From NCBI GenBank assembly GCA_016758965.1, contig JAEPRB010000088.1, positions 79,469 to 143,468 of the forward strand: 64,000 nt of DNA, read 5' to 3'. This document shows positions 21,956 to 63,534 of this stretch, piece after piece. The notes under the pieces were generated by a model that searched no databases, was not told where the DNA came from, and saw nothing but the letters and a program-made list of their open reading frames with translations. Made by a program: the position numbers and the translations under genes. Each line of letters begins with the position of its first letter. Position 1 is the stretch's first letter. Origin of the DNA: Circinella minor (Eukaryota > Mucoromycota > Mucoromycetes > Mucorales > Lichtheimiaceae).

Positions 21956-22027
21956 TCTTGTCAATTATAATAAAAAAAAACAGATGAAAAAATAACTGTT
22001 AAGATTAGTATTTGACTTAATTTCACA

Positions 22028-22495
22028 TTGGATAACAAAAAGAAAAACGCGAGTAATTACTTTGATATGTGTATTTTTAAAAAAGAAACACCACCAACAC
22101 CACCAACACCAACAAAAGAGAAAGAAGAGAAAGAAGAAAAAAGCGAAAAAGAGAAAACAAGAAAAGAGAAACGAAAAGCGAAAGAGAAGAGCGGAAAGAC
22201 AAGCAAAAAGAGAGGAGCAAAAGGCAAGCAACAAGAAAGGAAAAAGAAAAAGAAAAGTGCAAGGAGAGCGAAAGACAAGCAAATAAGAAAGCAACAAGAA
22301 ATGTGCGAAGGAAACCGAGAGAAAACCAAAAGAGAAAGCAAACAGACAAGCAAAAAGACAAGCAGCAATAAGGAAAGTAACAAGACAGACAAAAGAAGAG
22401 CAAAATATAAAGGAAAAGACAAGCGAGAAGAAAAGGGAAAGAAAAAGAAAAGCGAAAGAAGAGAAGAAAAGAAAGCGAAAGAAAAAGTTGAATAA
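22028..22495 (+). CDS. Hypothetical Lys/Glu-rich protein from a purine-only tract (left arm)
   Basis: An ORF of 155 aa, MDNKKKNASNYFDMCIFKKE then Pro-Thr repeats and about 110 residues made almost only of Lys, Glu, Arg, Ser and Gln. The DNA from about 22,115 to 22,490 is nearly pure purine (AAG/GAA/AGC) on the plus strand. Several frames stay open because purine tracts rarely form stops, so this may be a DNA feature and not a gene. The right-arm counterpart (minus strand, from about 24,921) starts MDNKMKNASDYFFVCMSKKK and diverges by frameshift into a shorter frame. Low confidence as a protein gene. Confidence 0.25.
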   Translation: MDNKKKNASNYFDMCIFKKETPPTPPTPTKEKEEKEEKSEKEKTRKEKRKAKEKSGKTSKKRGAKGKQQERKKKKKSARRAKDKQIRKQQEMCEGNREKTKRESKQTSKKTSSNKESNKTDKRRAKYKGKDKREEKGKKKKSERREEKKAKEKVE

Positions 22496-24675: not shown

Positions 24676-24921
24676 TTATTGTTGCTTTCTTATTTGCTTG
24701 TCTTTTGCTCCTCTCTTTTTGCTTGTCTTTCCGCTCTTCTCTTTCGCTTTTCGTTTCTCTGTTCTCGTTTTCTCTTTTTCGCTTTTCTCTTCTTTCTCTT
24801 CTTTCTCTTCTTTCTCTTCTTTCTCTTCTTTCTCTTCTTTTTGTTGGTGTTGGTGGTGTTGTTTCTTTTTAGACATACACACAAAAAAGTAATCGCTCGC
24901 GTTTTTCATTTTGTTATCCAA
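24676..24921 (-). pseudogene. Right-arm copy of the Lys/Glu-rich ORF, truncated
   Basis: On the minus strand it starts MDNKMKNASDYFFVCMSKKK and passes through EEKEEKEEKEEKEEK repeats into a frame related to the left-arm ORF (KSEKEKTRTEKRKAKEKSGK). It stops after 81 residues where the left arm continues to 155. This is a length-diverged copy, and neither may be translated. Confidence 0.35.
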
Positions 24922-24990
24922 TGTAAAATTAATTCAAATACTAATCTTAACAATTATTCTTTCATCTTTTTTTTATTATAATTGACAAGA

Positions 24991-30780: not shown

Positions 30781-30838
30781 GTGATATCACGCACCATCAA
30801 TGATTTAAAACTATTTTTTTTTTTTGAAAACTATAAAA
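30781..30838 (+). promoter_or_regulatory. TATA box and upstream 10-bp palindrome of the peptide gene
   Basis: TATAAAA lies at 30,832-30,838, about 98 bp before the ATG at 30,936, a normal distance for a TATA-driven fungal gene. About 40 bp further upstream is a perfect palindrome, GTGATATCAC (30,781-30,790), which could bind a dimeric regulator. The TATA call is reasonable; the palindrome's role is inference. Confidence 0.55.
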
Positions 30839-30935
30839 AGGCCAAGATTTAAAAGTTATTTCAGTTTAAACACTATTTTCAAGTTATTGTCATATTACTT
30901 TTACAAGTCTTCTAAAAACAAGAATTTATAGTATC

Positions 30936-31511
30936 ATGCGTTTCACTTCAAGTAAACTATTTATTGCTGTCCTTGCTCTCTTTGCAGTCTCTACTGTAGC
31001 CGCTATGCCCGTCGCAGATCCCAATCAAGTACAAACAGAAGCAACCCATAAGCAAGCAAAAAGACAATGCTACATTGATGAAAACGGTGTTCAACATTGC
31101 ATCGACCCTAAACAAGCACATCAAAAACGACAATGTTACATTGATGAAAATGGTGTTCAACATTGTATCGACCCTAAACAAGCACATCAAAAACGACAAT
31201 GTTACATTGATGAAAACGGTGTACAGCACTGCATTGACCCAAAACAAGCACATCAAAAACGTCAATGCTACATTGATGAAAACGGTGTCCAGCATTGTAT
31301 CGACCCTAAACAAGCACATCAAAAACGACAATGCTACATTGATGAAAACGGTGTACAACATTGCATCGACCCTAAACAAGCACATCAAAAACGACAATGC
31401 TACATTGATGAAAACGGTGTACAACATTGCATCGACCCTAAACAAGCACATCAAAAACGTCAATGCTACATTGATGAAAACGGTGTACAACATTGCATCG
31501 ACCCAAAATAG
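30936..31511 (+). CDS. Secreted Kex2-processed repeat-peptide precursor
   Basis: A single exon of 191 aa. Residues 1-23 are a signal peptide (MRFTSSKLFIAVLALFAVST then VAA/M). Residues 24-43 are a propeptide ending THKQAKR. From residue 44 come seven units of 22 residues, each beginning QCYIDENGVQHCIDPK and, in the first six, ending QAHQ plus Lys-Arg; the seventh stops after the Lys of IDPK. Lys-Arg is the Kex2 site, so processing would release six 20-residue peptides (after carboxypeptidase trimming) and one of 16. Each has two Cys ten residues apart, able to form a disulfide loop, and an N-terminal Gln that could become pyroglutamate. The units are identical in protein but differ at nine synonymous codon positions. 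This is the layout of fungal KEP proteins, which include alpha-factor-type pheromones and dikaritin precursors. No modifying-enzyme gene (DUF3328/UstY type) lies in the window. The peptide's role is unknown. Confidence 0.9.
   Translation: MRFTSSKLFIAVLALFAVSTVAAMPVADPNQVQTEATHKQAKRQCYIDENGVQHCIDPKQAHQKRQCYIDENGVQHCIDPKQAHQKRQCYIDENGVQHCIDPKQAHQKRQCYIDENGVQHCIDPKQAHQKRQCYIDENGVQHCIDPKQAHQKRQCYIDENGVQHCIDPKQAHQKRQCYIDENGVQHCIDPK
31066..31509 (+). repeat. 66-bp tandem coding repeat, seven units
   Basis: Units start at 31,066, 31,132, 31,198, 31,264, 31,330, 31,396 and 31,462; the last is cut short by the stop codon. All base differences among units are synonymous: Cys TGC/TGT, Asn AAC/AAT, Val GTT/GTA/GTC, Gln CAA/CAG, His CAT/CAC, Ile ATC/ATT, Pro CCT/CCA and Arg CGA/CGT. 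Confidence 0.97.
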
Positions 31512-33327: not shown

Positions 33328-35825
33328 TTAATTGGATAATAAATATTCAATAGCTGCCTGTACATCACCACCTGTAGCCAATAAAGCACGTACATTAGCT
33401 TGTCGTTCTGAAAATCCCATTTCTTCCAATTGTTCAAGTTGTGATCTGAATCGTGTTTCTGGAGGTTCAGTAGTTGATGTATTTGAACCAGCTAAAGTTG
33501 CTGATCCAGTATTATTAGCACTATTATTATTATTATTATTATTATTAGGATTTCTATATGTTGATGATTGTCCATTAGTAAGTCCTTCATGTCACTGACA
33601 AATCATCACCCCCCCCCCAATTCCTCTATCTGATTAATGATAATATATCTATTTAAGAACAAACTTTACCCTAAATTCCATAATCCTCCTCCTGAAAAAG
33701 GAAACATTGGCATTTGTTGTTGTTGATTACCCTCTTGTTGAGAGTTTTGTCTTTGACTTTCCGTCATAGCTTGTTGTAAACGCATACTAGCTTGAATAAA
33801 GTTTGGATCAGCCCAAAATGGAACCTGTTGTTGCTGTGTATTGGTATTGTTGTCCGTAGACGATGGAGGAGTCGATGTGGATGTATTCTAATATGACATA
33901 GAGTTAAGATGAATCATGTCAATAATTTTCAAAATTTAAAAAAGTTTCATGTATAATCTTATATAAGTGTTTTTTTTTGTCTCTTTTTTTTATTACCGAT
34001 TGTTGTTGTCCTTGTCCTTGTTGTGGGTTCATGAATGGAAACATGGATAAGCCTATATCAATTTCATAAATAATAATTTAGTAATTCAATCTACTTTAAA
34101 AGAAAAATTGTCTTTTCTCTCAAGATAATAAAAAAAAAATTGATTACTTACCAGCAAATGGGTTATTATTATTATTATTATTATTATTGGTTGAATCATT
34201 GTTGTCTGATGCATTGTTACCTCCCATACCACCTAAAGCACCCAAAGCACCTAATCCACCTAATCCACCAAGTCCACCTAAACCACTCAAAGCGGATGCA
34301 TCCAATCCACCTGCACTGGTGGGTGAAGATGAAGAATCTTGAGATCGAGATGGAGTAGCCCAAGGGTTTGGCAATGCCTGGGTATTTAATTGATTTTCTA
34401 AAAGAAGTTTTATCAGTGTACACATTAAAAAAAAAAAAAGATATGGGTTGATCACACTCATGCCTTCTTCTTTTTTTACCTGGAATACTAGTAACATTCA
34501 ATTCCCGTGCAAGTCGAGCATTTGCTTCTTCAGTAGAACGATCATCAGGTCGAGCAGCAGATTCTAAAGGATCTTGGAAAGTATTATACATTCGTCGTAA
34601 ATGATTGAAACCTCCTGGAAGTGCCTAATAATTGTGTATATACAATGTATTTAGATCTTTTCTCTCTCTCTCTTTCTCTCCTTTTTCCTTTCTTGTTTAT
34701 TTATCTTTCTTACTTCAATATTAGATAAAGCACGATCATTACTACGTTGCATTTGTCGCATCATTTCTGGGTTTCTATATAAAACAATAATTATTAATAT
34801 ACCTTTCCTCCAAAAAAAAAAAAAAAAAAAAAAAGGACAAGAATAGTGTGTAAACTTATTTTCTTTTTTTTTTACCTCATCATTTCTATTGATTGTCGTA
34901 AGAATGCAGGATCATTAATAACATGACCAATCTCTGGGTTTTGTTCTACTAATGTTCTCATTTGTGGATTACTCATAATAATGGACCGTACAAGATCTAT
35001 ATATAAAAATTAAATAAATAAATATAAACAGTTCAGTATTATACATCCTATTTCATATTATTATTATTATTATTATTTGTCACTGTGATTTTATTTTACC
35101 AGTATTGCCCAATAAATTTTGCATCATGGGTGAATCCATTAATCGTCGCATAGTTTCAGGTTCCATCATAGGTGTACGCATATTCCCACCACCAAACATA
35201 TCTAATGGATCTTGTCCTTGTTGTCCCAATCCGCCTAGACCGGGAAATCCTCCTAAACGTGGCGTATGTGTCGATTCATTTGTGGCACTATCGGCAGGTG
35301 TATTAGCATTAGTCGTATTTGTTGTTGTTGTTGTTGAAGGAGTTCCTGCTGTTGCTGTTGTTGTAGTATTAGCAGTAGTTGTAGTAGTAGTGTCATTATT
35401 AGGTGCAGTAGGTGTCGATGCTTTCGAAGTGTGTGGACTTGAAGAAGAAGAAGAAGTTTGTTGTTTTTTAGCTGTCGATCGAACCACATGAATTGTATGA
35501 CCTTGACTAATTTCTAAATTATTTTTGTTATTGTTATTAATATTATGAATAATTTTTTTTTTAAAAAAAGGGAAGTTTATCGATTGTGAAGAGAGATAAT
35601 TTTACTTAAAAAAAAAAAAAAAAACTTACTATAATCTTGACAAATATCGTCATCCTTTAGTATCCGACCCGAGTAAACAAGTCGAAGCTCATAAGGTTCT
35701 GCATTATCCATCTTATCAGCGATCAGTTGTTTAAGTTCAAGAATGGTAATTGATTCGGGATCAAACTCAACATCAATCAAGTTGCCATTGGATGGTCGAA
35801 TCTTTACGGTAATTGAAGTTCCCAT
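33328..35825 (-). CDS. DSK2: Ubiquilin/Dsk2 proteasome shuttle factor
   Basis: Nine exons on the minus strand: 35825-35630, 35513-35100, 34996-34876, 34774-34714, 34624-34480, 34397-34152, 34052-33997, 33887-33670 and 33553-33328; 560 aa (yeast Dsk2 373, human ubiquilins ~590). It has an N-terminal ubiquitin-like domain ([20 protein letters not shown] to [12 protein letters not shown]), a Ser/Thr/Asn linker, STI1-type helices ([54 protein letters not shown]), the conserved [20 protein letters not shown] block, a Gly-Leu repeat, Gln/Asn-rich parts, and a C-terminal UBA ([20 protein letters not shown] then [16 protein letters not shown]). Dsk2 carries ubiquitinated clients to the proteasome and works in ER-associated degradation and spindle-pole duplication. 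For the last junction I used the acceptor at 33,554, which has a TACTAAT branch site 24 nt upstream and keeps frame; the nearer AG at 33,585 would give a stop. Confidence 0.93.
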
Positions 35826-37091
35826 TATTATATATATATATATATATTTATAGTGGGAAGCCAAAGGGAGAAAAAAAAGAATTGAGGGGATATATATGTA
35901 TATATATATAAAAAAAAAAAAGAAGACCCTACAACGAGAGGAAGACTAAAAAAAAAAAAAAATCCCCACACGGAACACGCAACCTTTCCTTTTTTTTGCG
36001 TGGTTAGAAAAAAAAAAAAAAGACGTAATGCTGGGAATCCCCATGCGGAACAATCATTGGATAAATTGGTTAAATGACAATGAAACCCAAAAAAAAATCA
36101 GCACTGTCCCCCCCTTCCCTATTATAAGTTTTATGAGGCCCAAGTTTTTTTTTTTGCTCCTTTGTTACATTTCTTACATAATAGTCAAAGTTTCAGAAAA
36201 AAAAAACCTTTGTTTTTGTTTTTTGGTTTGTTTACATAATAAATATCATGCAATATAAATTTTTAAAGTGATTGATCAACTTAAATGAGTTTTGCATGAA
36301 GGAGACTAAAATCTGTCTGTTTATTATTATTGTTGTCATAATTATTATGTCTAAGGTAAAATACTTTTCTTCTTGGCATCATAAGTCGAAATTATAATTC
36401 GAAAGAAGTGAGGGAGAGGGGGGGGGATTCTAAGTGATCATGCTGTGTTATTATTCAATTATTTTAAAAACATAACTTTATGCCAAGCAATTTATTTCAT
36501 TACATTATTGTTCCGCACAGACAATTTTTTTTTTAAATAAGATTATTTACTAATAATAACAATATATCCTCATCTTCTTTTCATTTATTTCTTTATGGAC
36601 ACTTTGCATTCATTTGGAGTGTATTGGAAAAACAAAACAAAAAAAAAAAATGAGCTTGCGTAAAGTAGATCACAAAAGTGAGAGAACCGAAACAATTCTT
36701 GGATGATCCAAGTTTTCAAAATTATGAGTAACAATCCAATCATGTTGGTTCAATAATAATAAGGAGTCAATCATTCTTTCATTGTTTTTAATAGGTGAGT
36801 TAACAATTATTAGTAATCCACGCAAGGGTGATCATTCTTCAAAATTAAAAAAGTGTTCACATGTTTTTATTTTTATTTTTTCCCTGTGCGCCATAAAGTA
36901 TTGGATGTTCTATGCTATATAATTTGTTGACAACGGATAGAAAATAACCATGGCGCAACCTGGAGGAAAAATAATAATAATAATTTTTTTTTCCCCCGGT
37001 TTTTTTGTTTTAGTTGCCGAAGGATGGATTATTTAACTTTATAACCTTTTTTATTTCCTAGATCCAGGAGGAAAAAAAAAAAAAAAAAGTC
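35826..37091. other. Divergent promoter region of DSK2 and the rhodanese gene
   Basis: Shared upstream region of two divergent genes. It has (TA)n runs near 35,829-35,847 and 35,891-35,911, poly-A and poly-C/G runs, and an A16 tract just before the rhodanese ATG. No coding sequence seen. Confidence 0.5.
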
Positions 37092-38400: not shown

Positions 38401-40270
38401 ATGGGTTTATGCATATCTTCAGATGAAAAAGCAGAAAAAGACCATAGTCAACATATTGATCGAATATTAGAAGAAGATTTTCAAAAACTTAAACGAGAAT
38501 GCAAGATATTATTGTTGGGTAATTATACTATTATTATAATTATAAAATATGAACAATGAAAATTTGATAATATTATATTTAGGAAGTGGAGAATCGGGCA
38601 AGTCAACTATTGTAAAACAAATGAAAATTATCCATCAAAATGGTTACACGGCCGATGAATTAATGGCATGGCGTGGTGCAGTTTATAAAAATTTAATCGA
38701 ATCCGCTCATACATTGATCGCCGGTGTTCGCAAATTTGATTACAATTTTGAAGAAGAAAAAAATCAAGTAAGCTCATCTTATTTCACTAAATTATTGGGG
38801 GGGAAAAAACAACCGATTTTTATCAATAATCAGTACTCATCTTATTTATTTGTTTAGTATCATGCACAGCAAATTTTGGAATATAAACTTAGTAACAAAA
38901 ATATGGAAGAACCAATATGTTCTGAAATTGCTATAGCTATAGCAAGTATTTGGAAAGATGCCATTGTTGCACGTCTATTGGATAAAGAAGGAAATGATTT
39001 TTATATGATGGATTCGGCACCTTAGTAAGTTCTATTTTATCTACCTCTTTAATATTCCTTTCTATTCACATAAAAAATATATAAAAGTTTTTTCGAAAAT
39101 GCAAGTCGAATAGGTGAAAACGAATATATTCCAAATGTTCAAGATGTACTACGTGCACGATGCAAAACAACCGGAATATCGGAGACTCGATTTAAGATGG
39201 GCCAGTTAAATATTCAGTATGTATGCATTTTTATTTTTGCAGGAAAGCAAGTAGCTTAATTAAGTCTTTTTTTGATAGCATGTTTGACGTAGGTGGTCAA
39301 CGTTCGGAACGTAAAAAATGGATTCATTGCTTTGAAGCTGTAACATCTATTATTTTTTGTGTATCCCTAAGTGAATATGATCAAGTTTTACTTGAGGAAT
39401 CTCGGCAGGTAAATTTTATTTATTTGTATATATTTGTATATATAACCCTTAGTTTTATTACATACTTCTCCTCGTTTTTCTCCCTTTGATCTTTCTTCAT
39501 ATGAGTGAAACATAATATATACGTAATGAAGAATGATAAAAAATTGTTACTCAAAAGATCTTTAACTATGATATGATATGATATATATTTTATTTTAGAA
39601 TCGTATGATGGAAAGCTTGGTATTATTCGAATCTGTTATTAATAGTCGATGGTTTTTAAGAACATCGATTATTCTTTTCTTAAACAAAATTGATGTTTTT
39701 AAAAAAAAGCTACCAAAAATACCATTGGAAAAATATTTTCCCGATTATGGAGGTAAAAAAAAAAAAAACATAATAGGATGATAATAAGCTTGGCAGTTGT
39801 AACTGAAAAATATATAACTGTTTATATATTATATATATAGGTGGTTCAGATATTAATAAAGCTGCAAAATATATTCTTTGGCGATTTAATCAAACAAATC
39901 GTGCTAAACTTCATATATTTCCACAGTAAGTCTGTAATTGATTCATCTCTATTGAAAAAAGAGGAATAACTATACTATTTCTGTTACATTTTTATTTTCA
40001 TTATTCTTTAACTTTCTCTCCCCCTTTTTTTTTGGCTCATCAACTTTAATTATAAAAAAAAAAAAGTCTTACTCAAGCAACTGATACACCTAATGTAAAG
40101 TATATAACTGCTACTAAAACTATTATTCTTTTTTTATTCTCAATTTACATTTAAAATATATGGTTTATATTACTTTTTTATTAACCCAATTATATTAGAT
40201 TCGACTCGTGTTTTCCGCCATTACTGATACGATTTTAAGGAACGCATTAAAAGATTCGGGTATCTTATAA
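38401..40270 (+). CDS. Heterotrimeric G-protein alpha subunit
   Basis: Nine exons: 38401-38518, 38583-38767, 38858-39024, 39088-39216, 39279-39408, 39599-39752, 39841-39925, 40067-40094 (28 nt) and 40199-40270; 355 aa, the usual G-alpha length. It couples seven-helix receptors to effectors at the plasma membrane. Motifs: MGLC start for myristoylation and palmitoylation (Gly2, Cys4), P-loop GSGESGKS (40-47), switch I RCKTTGI with catalytic Arg181, switch [14 protein letters not shown] with Gln207, NKID (272-275), and TQATD at the guanine-base loop (325-329) where Cys of the usual TCATD is replaced by Gln. The C-terminus is KDSGIL, so the Cys four from the end of Gi-type subunits is Ser and the pertussis-toxin acceptor is missing. 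Mucoromycota carry many G-alpha paralogs; I cannot say which class this is. Confidence 0.94.
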
Positions 40271-61465: not shown

Positions 61466-61611
61466 AGAAAAAATTGCCTAATGAAGAATCACATGGTTTT
61501 TTTTTTAAAATTTAAAAAATATATCCCGCCCTGATTTTCTTTTTCTTCTTTTTTCTTTTCCTTTTTTTTTTCTTTACACCTCAGAGCCTCTTTTTTTTTT
61601 ACTTGTTACTT

Positions 61612-63534
61612 ATGTATCGGCTACTTGAAGAATCCTTCCGTGAAGAACCTTTCGTTACTTTCGGTCTGGCTGTTTTTGCCTGCTACCTCGCACTCATTGC
61701 GATTAACGTTGCCTACCTGTACTATGTGTACTGTTTTCCGTGGTTTTGCTTTTGTGCATTCCTTGCCCTTGTGGCATTCATCTCTTTCTCGTCGTGTTGC
61801 AATTCATTGCGCACATTTATTGTTGGACAATGCTTGTCATTGGGACCTTTTTCCGTTTCGCCATTGCCGCCAAGTCCTGACTTTGCATTCGTTGCTCCTC
61901 GCCATGTGGAGGTTTCTCGTTTGCGGCGTGTGTTGTGTGAACCGCCTGTAATGGGCAAAAACCGAGAAGAAGAAAAGTCTGCTATTTCATATTTTAACTG
62001 GAATAATAACGCAGTTCGTCGTCGTGATAAGGGTTCATTACCTTTTCGTCACATTCTTGATTCTGACCCTATTGATGTACTTGGTGTGAATGTTGAAGTA
62101 TACTCATGGGCAGACATAATGCGTCGTATTAATGACTTTTATCGTCGACAGAATGATGACCGTAAAAAGTCTCATTCAAAAAACACATCGCCAACTGTGC
62201 TCCCTGATCCAGTTGATCTCTTGTGCGAACAGTTCGCGGCCATGGACTTAGGTCCTAGTGCCCAAGCTTCGGCTTCTGTTCAACATCAAGATGAGCCTGC
62301 ATCTCCGATGCTTGTTGATGTTATTTGCGATGATGTTCAAGTGCAATCATGGGAAGATGAAGCTGACGCTGATTCCTTAGCACTTACGAAAACTTTCTCT
62401 TCTTCTTCAGCAGGAACACCTTTCCCTGATTGCGATGTGGAAATGGAAGATTCTTTTGAAAATGATTCCAATGAAATCCCTTCTGCAGCTGCTGGAGAGA
62501 TTGGTCCTGTTGCCATGGATATTGATGGTGATTCCGTATCCATGGATAACCGCGTACAAGAACAGGAACAACAACAAGAACAACAACAAAGCTCAGTTGG
62601 CTTTGATGCCACTGATGCTATGGACACTGCTGCTGAGTTGGCATTCATGTCACCAGCACAAGAGCAGTCAATCCCAGATGGACACACTCCTGTAGTTGGT
62701 ACTGTTGATGATTCGGACGACTTTAGTCCTGAAGTATTTGCTGATACTGCTGCAGTTGAGGCCTCTGAACATGCGCAAGATGTGGGTGATTCCACAGCAT
62801 CAATTGATGCACTTGCTTTGGCTATTTTAGCCAACATGTTACCACCTTTGGAGCAATCCAATATCATTACTGATGGTTTTGCTAGTCTTGCGGATGTGTC
62901 TTCGGATTTCCCTGCTATGACAAATGCTGCCACTTTAGTTGAGGAATCCAATGGTGAAGAAGTTCGTGTAGGTGTCGATGAACTTGTAGAAAGAGAAGCA
63001 CTTACAAGTGCTATGCAAACTGCTGCTGAGTTGGCTTTCATGCCACCAGCACAAGAGCAGTCAATGCCAGAGGAATACACTCCTGTATTCAGCACTGATG
63101 ATTATTCAGATATAATCGCTGCTGCTGTTGCAGTCGAGAACTCTGAACATGTGCAAGATGTAGGTGATTCTACAGCATTGTATAATGCACTTGCTTTGGC
63201 TATGGAAGCCAACATGTTACCATCTTTGGATTTATCCAATATGACTACTGATGGTTATGCTAGCCTTGTAGATGTGTCTTCGGACTTCCCTACTATGGCC
63301 AATGCTGCCTCTTTAGTTGAGGTATTCAATGATGAAGAAGTTCGTGTAGGTGTCGACGAACTTGCAGAAGGTGACGCCTCAGTGCTGATCCCTGCTAATG
63401 AAGAAGACCGTGTAGGTGTCGACGGTCATATGAACGACGTTGAAACTCCTTTCCTCCCACCACCAGAAGCTGCACGACTTCCTGAAATTGATGATATTCT
63501 TGCTGAAATCCTTGGGGATGATGATGATGATTGA
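61612..63534 (+). CDS. Orphan 640-aa membrane-anchored acidic protein
   Basis: A single open exon of 640 aa from the ATG at 61,612 (MYRLLEESFREEPFVTFGLA); the frame is open slightly further upstream, but this is its first ATG and it follows a T-rich leader. Two hydrophobic helices (about residues 13-38 and 43-63, Cys/Phe-rich) form a hairpin anchor. About 580 residues of acidic, Ala/Ser/Glu-rich, mostly disordered sequence follow. Residues 336-466 and 467-590 are an internal duplication (131-residue period; 393 bp) with AELAFM(S/P)PAQEQS, EHAQDVGDSTA, ALALA, ANMLP, DVSSDFP, and EEVRVGVDEL. It ends in an Asp run. GC content and codon use (GCT, GTT, GAA, TCT) are unlike the flanks. No family recognised. 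The stop is followed by at least two good introns. Confidence 0.7.
   Translation: MYRLLEESFREEPFVTFGLAVFACYLALIAINVAYLYYVYCFPWFCFCAFLALVAFISFSSCCNSLRTFIVGQCLSLGPFSVSPLPPSPDFAFVAPRHVEVSRLRRVLCEPPVMGKNREEEKSAISYFNWNNNAVRRRDKGSLPFRHILDSDPIDVLGVNVEVYSWADIMRRINDFYRRQNDDRKKSHSKNTSPTVLPDPVDLLCEQFAAMDLGPSAQASASVQHQDEPASPMLVDVICDDVQVQSWEDEADADSLALTKTFSSSSAGTPFPDCDVEMEDSFENDSNEIPSAAAGEIGPVAMDIDGDSVSMDNRVQEQEQQQEQQQSSVGFDATDAMDTAAELAFMSPAQEQSIPDGHTPVVGTVDDSDDFSPEVFADTAAVEASEHAQDVGDSTASIDALALAILANMLPPLEQSNIITDGFASLADVSSDFPAMTNAATLVEESNGEEVRVGVDELVEREALTSAMQTAAELAFMPPAQEQSMPEEYTPVFSTDDYSDIIAAAVAVENSEHVQDVGDSTALYNALALAMEANMLPSLDLSNMTTDGYASLVDVSSDFPTMANAASLVEVFNDEEVRVGVDELAEGDASVLIPANEEDRVGVDGHMNDVETPFLPPPEAARLPEIDDILAEILGDDDDD

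What the first reader, a model, noticed from the sequence alone, without database searches (positions are those of the whole stretch)
30936..31511. Secreted precursor of seven identical Cys-loop peptides released by Kex2
The sequence shows a signal peptide, a propeptide ending in Lys-Arg, and seven 22-residue units each flanked by Lys-Arg. The core QCYIDENGVQHCIDPK has two Cys ten residues apart and an N-terminal Gln. Known: Kex2-processed repeat proteins give rise to fungal pheromones and some ribosomal peptides. Known: mating in Mucoromycota is controlled by trisporoids, and no peptide pheromone of this sequence is known to me. Inference: the gene makes a multi-copy secreted disulfide peptide, possibly a signal, self-signal or interaction peptide. 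No cyclising or modifying enzyme gene lies within the window.
Basis: partly seen in the sequence, partly recalled or inferred. Interest (0 to 1): 0.88.

Follow-up and report, generated by a model that had tools for sequence, protein, structure and literature searches.

The report
Seven-copy secreted disulfide-hairpin peptide precursor
A fungal gene encodes one secreted-type protein that is predicted to be cut into seven copies of the same small, disulfide-closed hairpin peptide, and very similar units occur in distantly related plant-associated fungi and in one nematode, so it is a good candidate for an unstudied extracellular signal or interaction peptide.

Summary
Window 30936-31511 (+) is a 191-residue ORF: a signal-peptide-like start, a short propeptide ending in KR, six 22-residue units QCYIDENGVQHCIDPKQAHQKR and a seventh, 16-residue unit ending at the stop. 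The six full units differ at 9 DNA columns, all third codon positions (63 synonymous, 0 non-synonymous pairwise codon differences), so the peptide is held by selection. Genome searches found one copy and two kexin-type protease loci.

[quoted passage not shown] PMC6339444, PMC7329392); the unit was not found in paper texts. New here is a family: KR|QC[YF][IV]xxxGxQxC recurs in a close ortholog (P0001), in Cercospora, Zymoseptoria, Ramularia and Sphaerulina, and, without KR, as a single-copy secreted-type miniprotein in the nematode Steinernema carpocapsae. All 60 CX9C motifs counted in 13 proteins carry Gly at the same place; 4 units of two relatives have other Cys spacings. AlphaFold2 draws a beta-hairpin for every window unit, at modest confidence.

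Best reading: a disulfide hairpin with N-terminal pyroglutamate, released in seven copies, most likely as an extracellular ligand. Processing is inferred; the role is open.

The parts
30832..30841 (+). TATA-like element TATAAAAAGG about 95-104 bases before the ATG
   Evidence: 3 copies in the window against 0.57 expected, 0 of 100 shuffles reach 3. The P0001 match extends into this upstream stretch. Function inferred.
30936..31511 (+). whole precursor ORF, 191 aa plus stop TAG
30936..31004 (+). signal-peptide-like leader MRFTSSKLFIAVLALFAVSTVAA
   Evidence: read from the sequence: basic n-region, hydrophobic core, V-A-A at -3 to -1; no SignalP run
31005..31064 (+). propeptide MPVADPNQVQTEATHKQAKR ending in KR
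   Evidence: leader plus propeptide 36 of 43 residues identical in P0001
31065..31130 (+). unit 1, QCYIDENGVQHCIDPKQAHQKR
31131..31196 (+). unit 2, same peptide
31197..31262 (+). unit 3, same peptide
31263..31328 (+). unit 4, same peptide
31329..31394 (+). unit 5, same peptide
31395..31460 (+). unit 6, same peptide
31461..31508 (+). unit 7, 16 residues only (QCYIDENGVQHCIDPK), no QAHQKR tail

Best explanation
A Kex2-processed repeat protein. The leader takes it into the secretory pathway (inferred from sequence). In the ER each unit's C2 and C12 pair, closing a beta-hairpin whose turn is D-E-N-G with the family's conserved Gly at the bulge position (predicted). A kexin cuts after each KR (inferred; kexin-type genes are present), and a Kex1-like carboxypeptidase removes KR or the terminal K (inferred). 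The exposed N-terminal Gln becomes pyroglutamate (inferred). One translation thus yields seven copies of an acidic, hydrophilic 15-20-residue disulfide peptide. Its most likely role is an extracellular ligand, between fungal cells or towards another organism; making many identical copies of a conserved small peptide is the logic of alpha-factor-type ligands. I give about 0.9 to the precursor and processing reading, about 0.7 to the hairpin, and about 0.45 to a signal between fungal cells.
For: Anatomy and unit identity. Selection on the peptide: 63 synonymous to 0 non-synonymous pairwise codon differences, null about 1e-6. Ortholog P0001 keeps leader, KR sites and five units. The last unit stops right behind the core in both. 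Over 29 distinct first-hairpin CX9C motifs of 13 proteins, C2 and C12 (by choice) and G8 are in all 29, and Q1 and Q10 each in 27 of 29. 35 CX9C motifs follow KR or RR plus one residue, which is Q in 33. AlphaFold2 gives two strands (unit positions 1-4 and 10-13) in each of seven units. Two genomic loci with S8 and P domains; Peptidase_S10 stretches. Net charge about -2 and GRAVY -1.08 for the 20-mer, unlike a cationic membrane-active peptide.
Against: No expression, proteomic or phenotype data. The AlphaFold2 model has mean pLDDT 59.4 and pTM 0.19; no residue reaches 90. Four units of relatives break the spacing: three of P0005 are CX13C and one of P0014 is CX8C. STE2 and STE3 searches found nothing in the genome, but their controls also found nothing, so a receptor of known type is neither shown nor excluded. 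Dothideomycete units differ within a protein, which is less ligand-like than the window's array. Window and ortholog units differ at 7 of 22 residues.
Confidence: 0.62

Rival explanations
1. The released hairpin acts on another organism (plant, animal, competing microbe), for instance as an interaction peptide, enzyme inhibitor or antagonist, rather than as a signal between fungal cells.
For: Named relatives are in Cercospora zeina, Zymoseptoria brevis, Ramularia collo-cygni and Sphaerulina musiva (plant-associated; lifestyle recalled) and in Steinernema carpocapsae, an insect-parasitic nematode (recalled). Between window and ortholog P0001 the differences inside the core are at positions 5, 7, 9, 11 and 14, with C2, Y3, I4, G8, Q10 and C12 kept, which suits a stable frame with a changing face.
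Against: The array is perfectly homogeneous within the species, and divergence of units (7 of 22) is not significantly above leader and propeptide divergence (7 of 43; Fisher p 0.20). Nothing shows host contact.
Confidence: 0.35
2. It is a structural cell-wall or hyphal-surface repeat protein (Rep1- or PIR-like), processed or not.
For: Kex2-cut repeat proteins that attach to hyphae exist (Rep1 of Ustilago maydis, as cited in PMC6339444). Repeats and Gln residues are common in wall proteins (recalled).
Against: The 20-mer is hydrophilic (GRAVY -1.08), unlike repellents (recalled as hydrophobic). By eye there is no membrane segment beyond the leader. Cys, Gly and the start right behind KR are kept across relatives, which a wall repeat does not need.
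Confidence: 0.12
3. A ustiloxin-like modified cyclic peptide (dikaritin-type RiPP).
For: KEP precursor with a Tyr in each unit.
Against: No UstYa (PF11807) match in the genome, though controls were silent too. No UstYa among the 25 scanned window ORFs. The family keeps Cys, Gly and Gln most strictly; Tyr is in 23 of 29 motifs.
Confidence: 0.04
4. About ancestry, not function: the similarity to Dothideomycete and nematode units is convergence on an easy disulfide-hairpin sequence, not common descent or transfer.
For: The shared stretch is only 12-14 residues; the nematode-to-window match is 28.5 bits. The Dothideomycete units and the nematode protein have a second hairpin that the window lacks. 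Few relatives were found. A similar short stretch turns up in avidin by chance-level match.
Against: Identity goes beyond structural residues (QCYIDEQGVQHCVD of P0003 against QCYIDENGVQHCID, 12 of 14). Searching the 46.6-Mb genome with P0009 at E<=10 returned seven matches, all seven in this gene. P0011 was found at E 6.9e-4 by a profile that did not contain it.
Confidence: 0.35

Closest known systems
Kex2-processed repeat proteins (KEPs), PMC6339444 and PMC7329392
   Same: Leader, at least three repeats of at least 8 residues between KR sites, repeats fill most of the protein
   Different: This unit sequence was not found in the paper texts searched; the papers' supplementary tables could not be read, so it may already be listed there
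Ascomycete alpha-type sexual pheromone precursors (two-Cys subgroup)
   Same: Multi-copy, KR-flanked short peptides with two Cys (PMC6339444) and an internal Gly-Gln (recalled; also in its RFCHLPGQGCSK example)
   Different: Loop is CX9C; no STE13 XA/XP dipeptide after KR; no STE2 match in the genome (uncalibrated)
Unnamed secreted-type proteins of Dothideomycetes: P0002, P0003, P0006, P0007 (named species) and P0004, P0008-P0010 (unnamed sources, alike in sequence)
   Same: QC[YF][IV]xxxGxQxC first hairpin, mostly right behind KR
   Different: They add a second hairpin (such as PTCxxxEDGSVxCV) to most units, and units vary within a protein
Steinernema carpocapsae L596_022482 (P0011)
   Same: QCYIDENGKQHC directly behind a signal-peptide-like leader, 11 of 12 identical
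   Different: One copy only, no KR, four Cys (two CX9C hairpins), an animal
Rep1 repellent peptides of Ustilago maydis (recalled, and as cited in PMC6339444)
   Same: Kex2-cut repeat precursor
   Different: This peptide is hydrophilic and disulfide-bearing

Membership tests
KEP | N-terminal signal peptide | tested here: inconclusive
   Read by eye from residues 1-23; the papers used SignalP, not available here
KEP | At least 3 repeats of at least 8 aa between KR/KK/RK/RR sites, none over 100 aa (PMC7329392 methods) | tested here: met
   Seven units of 22 aa (last 16), KR between all
KEP | Repeats occupy at least 15% of the protein (PMC6339444 methods) | tested here: met
   148 of 191 residues, counted from the coordinates
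KEP | A kexin that cuts the precursor | not testable with these tools
   Two kexin-type loci present; cleavage itself needs proteomics
Ascomycete alpha pheromone | STE13 signature XA or XP after KR (PMC6339444) | tested here: not met
   KR is followed by QC in all seven units
Ascomycete alpha pheromone | Cognate STE2 receptor | tested here: inconclusive
   No PF02116 match, but none in any of 14 control genomes either
Ustiloxin-type RiPP | UstYa/DUF3328 enzyme gene near the precursor | tested here: inconclusive
   No PF11807 in the genome search (silent controls) nor in 25 scanned window ORFs
Any Pfam family | A domain match that stands on its own | tested here: not met
   Nine names at E<=1, three of them above the curated cut-off, all with 0 stretches passing alone, i.e. 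inflated by repetition
Twin-CX9C mitochondrial proteins (recalled) | Two CX9C in a helical hairpin | tested here: not met
   One CX9C per unit, leader of secretory type, strands across each CX9C in the modest-confidence model

The most novel reading that the evidence does not exclude
A family of pyroglutamate-starting CX9C hairpin peptides used as extracellular messengers or interaction molecules spans Mucoromycota, Dothideomycetes and an insect-parasitic nematode. In fungi it is freed from polyprotein precursors by kexin, in the nematode directly by signal peptidase, so that the same N-terminus QCYIDENG is exposed by two routes; one lineage may mimic, or have acquired, the peptide of another.
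Probability: 0.15. Interest if true: 0.82.

Novelty: new member of a known kind. Interest (0 to 1): 0.52.

Why it matters
PMC6339444 (discussion) says that Mucoromycotina use apocarotenoids as sexual pheromones and that the role of KEPs in early-diverging fungi will have to be determined. This gene gives an exact peptide, exact masses and an apparently single-copy gene to delete, so a peptide ligand in such a fungus becomes directly testable. The shared unit in plant-associated Dothideomycetes and in a nematode would, if homologous, make it a KEP peptide with an unusually wide and recognisable family.

Tried and rejected
Pfam and NCBIfam scans gave only repeat-inflated or weak names, not used; these include an IL8 and a defensin-like name that do not stand alone or lie below cut-off. 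PDB sequence searches: family profile best fibronectin at E 0.88; window protein best E 1.4; P0011 matched an avidin chain at 4.3e-5 over residues 42-60, but that chain carries the stretch twice and each stretch alone has E 1.7, single avidin chains 0.1-0.3, so taken as chance. No relatives confirmed in viral contigs or prokaryote genomes by the patterns used (none, 4 pattern hits, 19 pattern hits; none confirmed). Structure library searches were not run because both models have mean pLDDT below 60. Faster divergence of units than of the leader: tested, not significant (p 0.20). Twin-CX9C mitochondrial and cationic antimicrobial readings set aside on leader, predicted strands and net charge. 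Of the 21 proteins listed (P0001-P0011, P0014) plus the window were used in the motif counts; nine were dropped: P0012 and P0021 (unrelated long repeats), P0020 (no CX9C unit), P0013 and P0015-P0019 (same leader as P0006 and then a different frame, perhaps unspliced introns). The motif counts took CX9C spacings only; one search lists the 4 of 32 KR/RR-led starts in relatives that have other spacings.

Literature: search listings. Of PMC6339444 I read abstract, Results, Discussion and the pipeline section; of PMC7329392 abstract, passages found by terms, part 1 of 2 of section 6, and the KEP detection method. All other papers were seen only in listings.

Full report
Observation. It has a leader MRFTSSKLFIAVLALFAVSTVAA, a propeptide ending in AKR, and units beginning at residues 44, 66, 88, 110, 132, 154 and 176. 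Six units are QCYIDENGVQHCIDPKQAHQKR; the seventh ends at QCYIDENGVQHCIDPK. Tandem Repeats Finder gives the array the highest score of its 65 rows (785).

More than chance. The six full units differ at nine DNA columns, every one a third codon position; pairwise codon differences are 63 synonymous and 0 non-synonymous. Ten distinct changes in the seven units, counted from the consensus of the six full ones and drawn with the same base types at random places, would all be synonymous with probability about 1.1e-6. So the units have drifted at silent sites while the peptide was held. Read one base later, the same units differ in amino acids, and two bases later they hold stops; the open frame on the other strand was not analysed further.

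Genome setting. The window lies in G000:C88 of an unnamed 46.6-Mb genome. Only one copy of the precursor was found: the protein search gave 1 match, a K-[RS]-Q-C-Y-[IVM] DNA pattern gave 8 hits, 7 of them the units, against 1 for the reversed control, and P0009 gave 7 matches, all in this gene; the tool scores only its best candidates. Two loci carry Peptidase_S8 plus the P domain of kexins, with a hydrophobic segment in the open frame behind each, by eye. Peptidase_S10 stretches (32 matches, exon by exon) may include Kex1-like enzymes. Searches for UstYa, STE2 and STE3 found nothing, but neither did their controls, so they say little. Neighbours look ordinary: a ubiquilin-like gene (ubiquitin-like and UBA domains, about 33.3-35.9 kb, -), a G-alpha gene (38.5-39.5 kb, +), an Ssl1 gene, an L7Ae-family ribosomal protein and others. 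In all, 25 window ORFs besides the precursor were scanned; genes with introns were not modelled.

Relatives. The protein search returned 6 proteins at E<=10. P0001 (72% identity; source ENA, 932-base contig) shares 36 of 43 leader and propeptide residues and has five units, four of them with the core QCYINEKGEQICIN. Its match to the genome runs on upstream of the start codon into the TATA-like region, so it is an ortholog from a near relative and its contig probably genomic. P0002 (Cercospora zeina, E 2.4e-21), P0003 (Zymoseptoria brevis, 2.0e-15), P0004, P0005 and P0006 (Sphaerulina musiva, 9.3e-3) follow; repetition inflates these E-values. A search with P0002 returned 4 proteins at E<=1 and added P0007 of Ramularia collo-cygni. 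A profile search with A1 gave 21 proteins at E<=10, among them Steinernema carpocapsae P0011 at E 6.9e-4, which was not in the profile. Its contig is 4.4 Mb long, which speaks against contamination. P0011 aligns to P0009 over 31 residues with 19 identical and to the window unit with 11 of 12 identical. All three protein searches passed on only word-sharing candidates, so the real spread may be wider.

Common frame. In 13 proteins I counted 60 CX9C motifs; all 60 have Gly six residues after the first Cys. The proteins were chosen by similarity and the motifs by Cys spacing, so this describes the family and is not an independent test. Against it, 4 of 32 KR/RR-led starts in the 12 relatives have another spacing: three CX13C in P0005 and one CX8C in P0014. 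Over 29 distinct first-hairpin motifs, G8 is in all 29, Q1 and Q10 each in 27, while positions 7, 9 and 11 vary most. The alternation on the second strand (9 high, 10 low, 11 high, 12 none) suits a beta-strand; the first strand shows it less. A three-residue loop E-N-G with a type I turn and G1 bulge would put C2 opposite C12 (my own geometry, from recalled hairpin rules). AlphaFold2 on the eight-sequence alignment gives strands at unit positions 1-4 and 10-13 in all seven units, with ten-residue block means of 51-75 pLDDT over the repeats, overall 59.4 and pTM 0.19. The two-unit, eight-Cys relative P0009 gives four hairpin-like strand pairs at mean pLDDT 58.1. The hairpin is thus a consistent, modest-confidence prediction.

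Mechanism. Entry into the secretory pathway, disulfide closure, kexin cuts after KR, carboxypeptidase trimming and pyroglutamate formation would give seven equal peptides. The last unit ends just behind the core in window and ortholog, which suggests that QAHQ/KTHQ is spacer and that the active part is about QCYIDENGVQHCID(PK). Shown: sequence, selection, one copy found, kexin-type loci, relatives. Inferred: secretion, cleavage, disulfide, pyroglutamate, role. A ligand role is favoured by homogeneity, multiplicity and hydrophilicity (charge about -2, GRAVY -1.08); an outward-directed role is favoured by the company of plant- and insect-associated species (recalled lifestyles). I cannot separate these with sequence alone.

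Known or new. KEPs were surveyed in 250 secretomes (PMC6339444) and 1461 strains (PMC7329392), and Mucoromycota had 357 KEPs in 38 of 39 strains (PMC7329392). No paper text in the library holds the unit strings that I searched; figures and supplementary tables were not covered. The alpha-pheromone reading fails on the STE13 signature. So this is a new member of a known kind, with an unusual spread of relatives as its most interesting trait.

Noticed in passing
window 38546-39489 (+): Pieces of a heterotrimeric G-protein alpha subunit gene lie about 7 kb downstream of the peptide gene (PF00503); probably coincidence.
   Followed up: partly
window 33328-35945 (-): Ubiquilin/Dsk2-like gene: ubiquitin-like domain at one end, UBA domain at the other.
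   Followed up: partly
window 61516-63531 (+): A 672-residue open frame (stop to stop) near the most GC-rich 2 kb of the window (0.41), with internally similar segments by eye and no Pfam match.
   Followed up: no
window 22016-22495 (+) and 24676-24933 (-): Two lysine/glutamate-rich low-complexity frames in opposite orientation with similar segments by eye, possibly an inverted duplication.
   Followed up: no
window 31065-31460: Silent variation among the units lies in the core and the last Arg codon; the codons for QAHQK show none. With so few changes this may be chance.
   Followed up: partly
P0002, P0003, P0004, P0006-P0010: These fungal relatives carry a second CX9C hairpin in most units (often CX9C-X5-CX9C) with a conserved DG and V-C-V pattern.
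   Followed up: partly
G000:C83 and G000:C293 (L002, L003): Two kexin-type protease loci rather than one in this genome.
   Followed up: partly
P0011 residues 42-60: The nematode stretch VTGQCYIDENGK resembles avidin's TGQCFIDRNGK; each match is at chance level, but the avidin segment is solved and could show how such a stretch folds.
   Followed up: no
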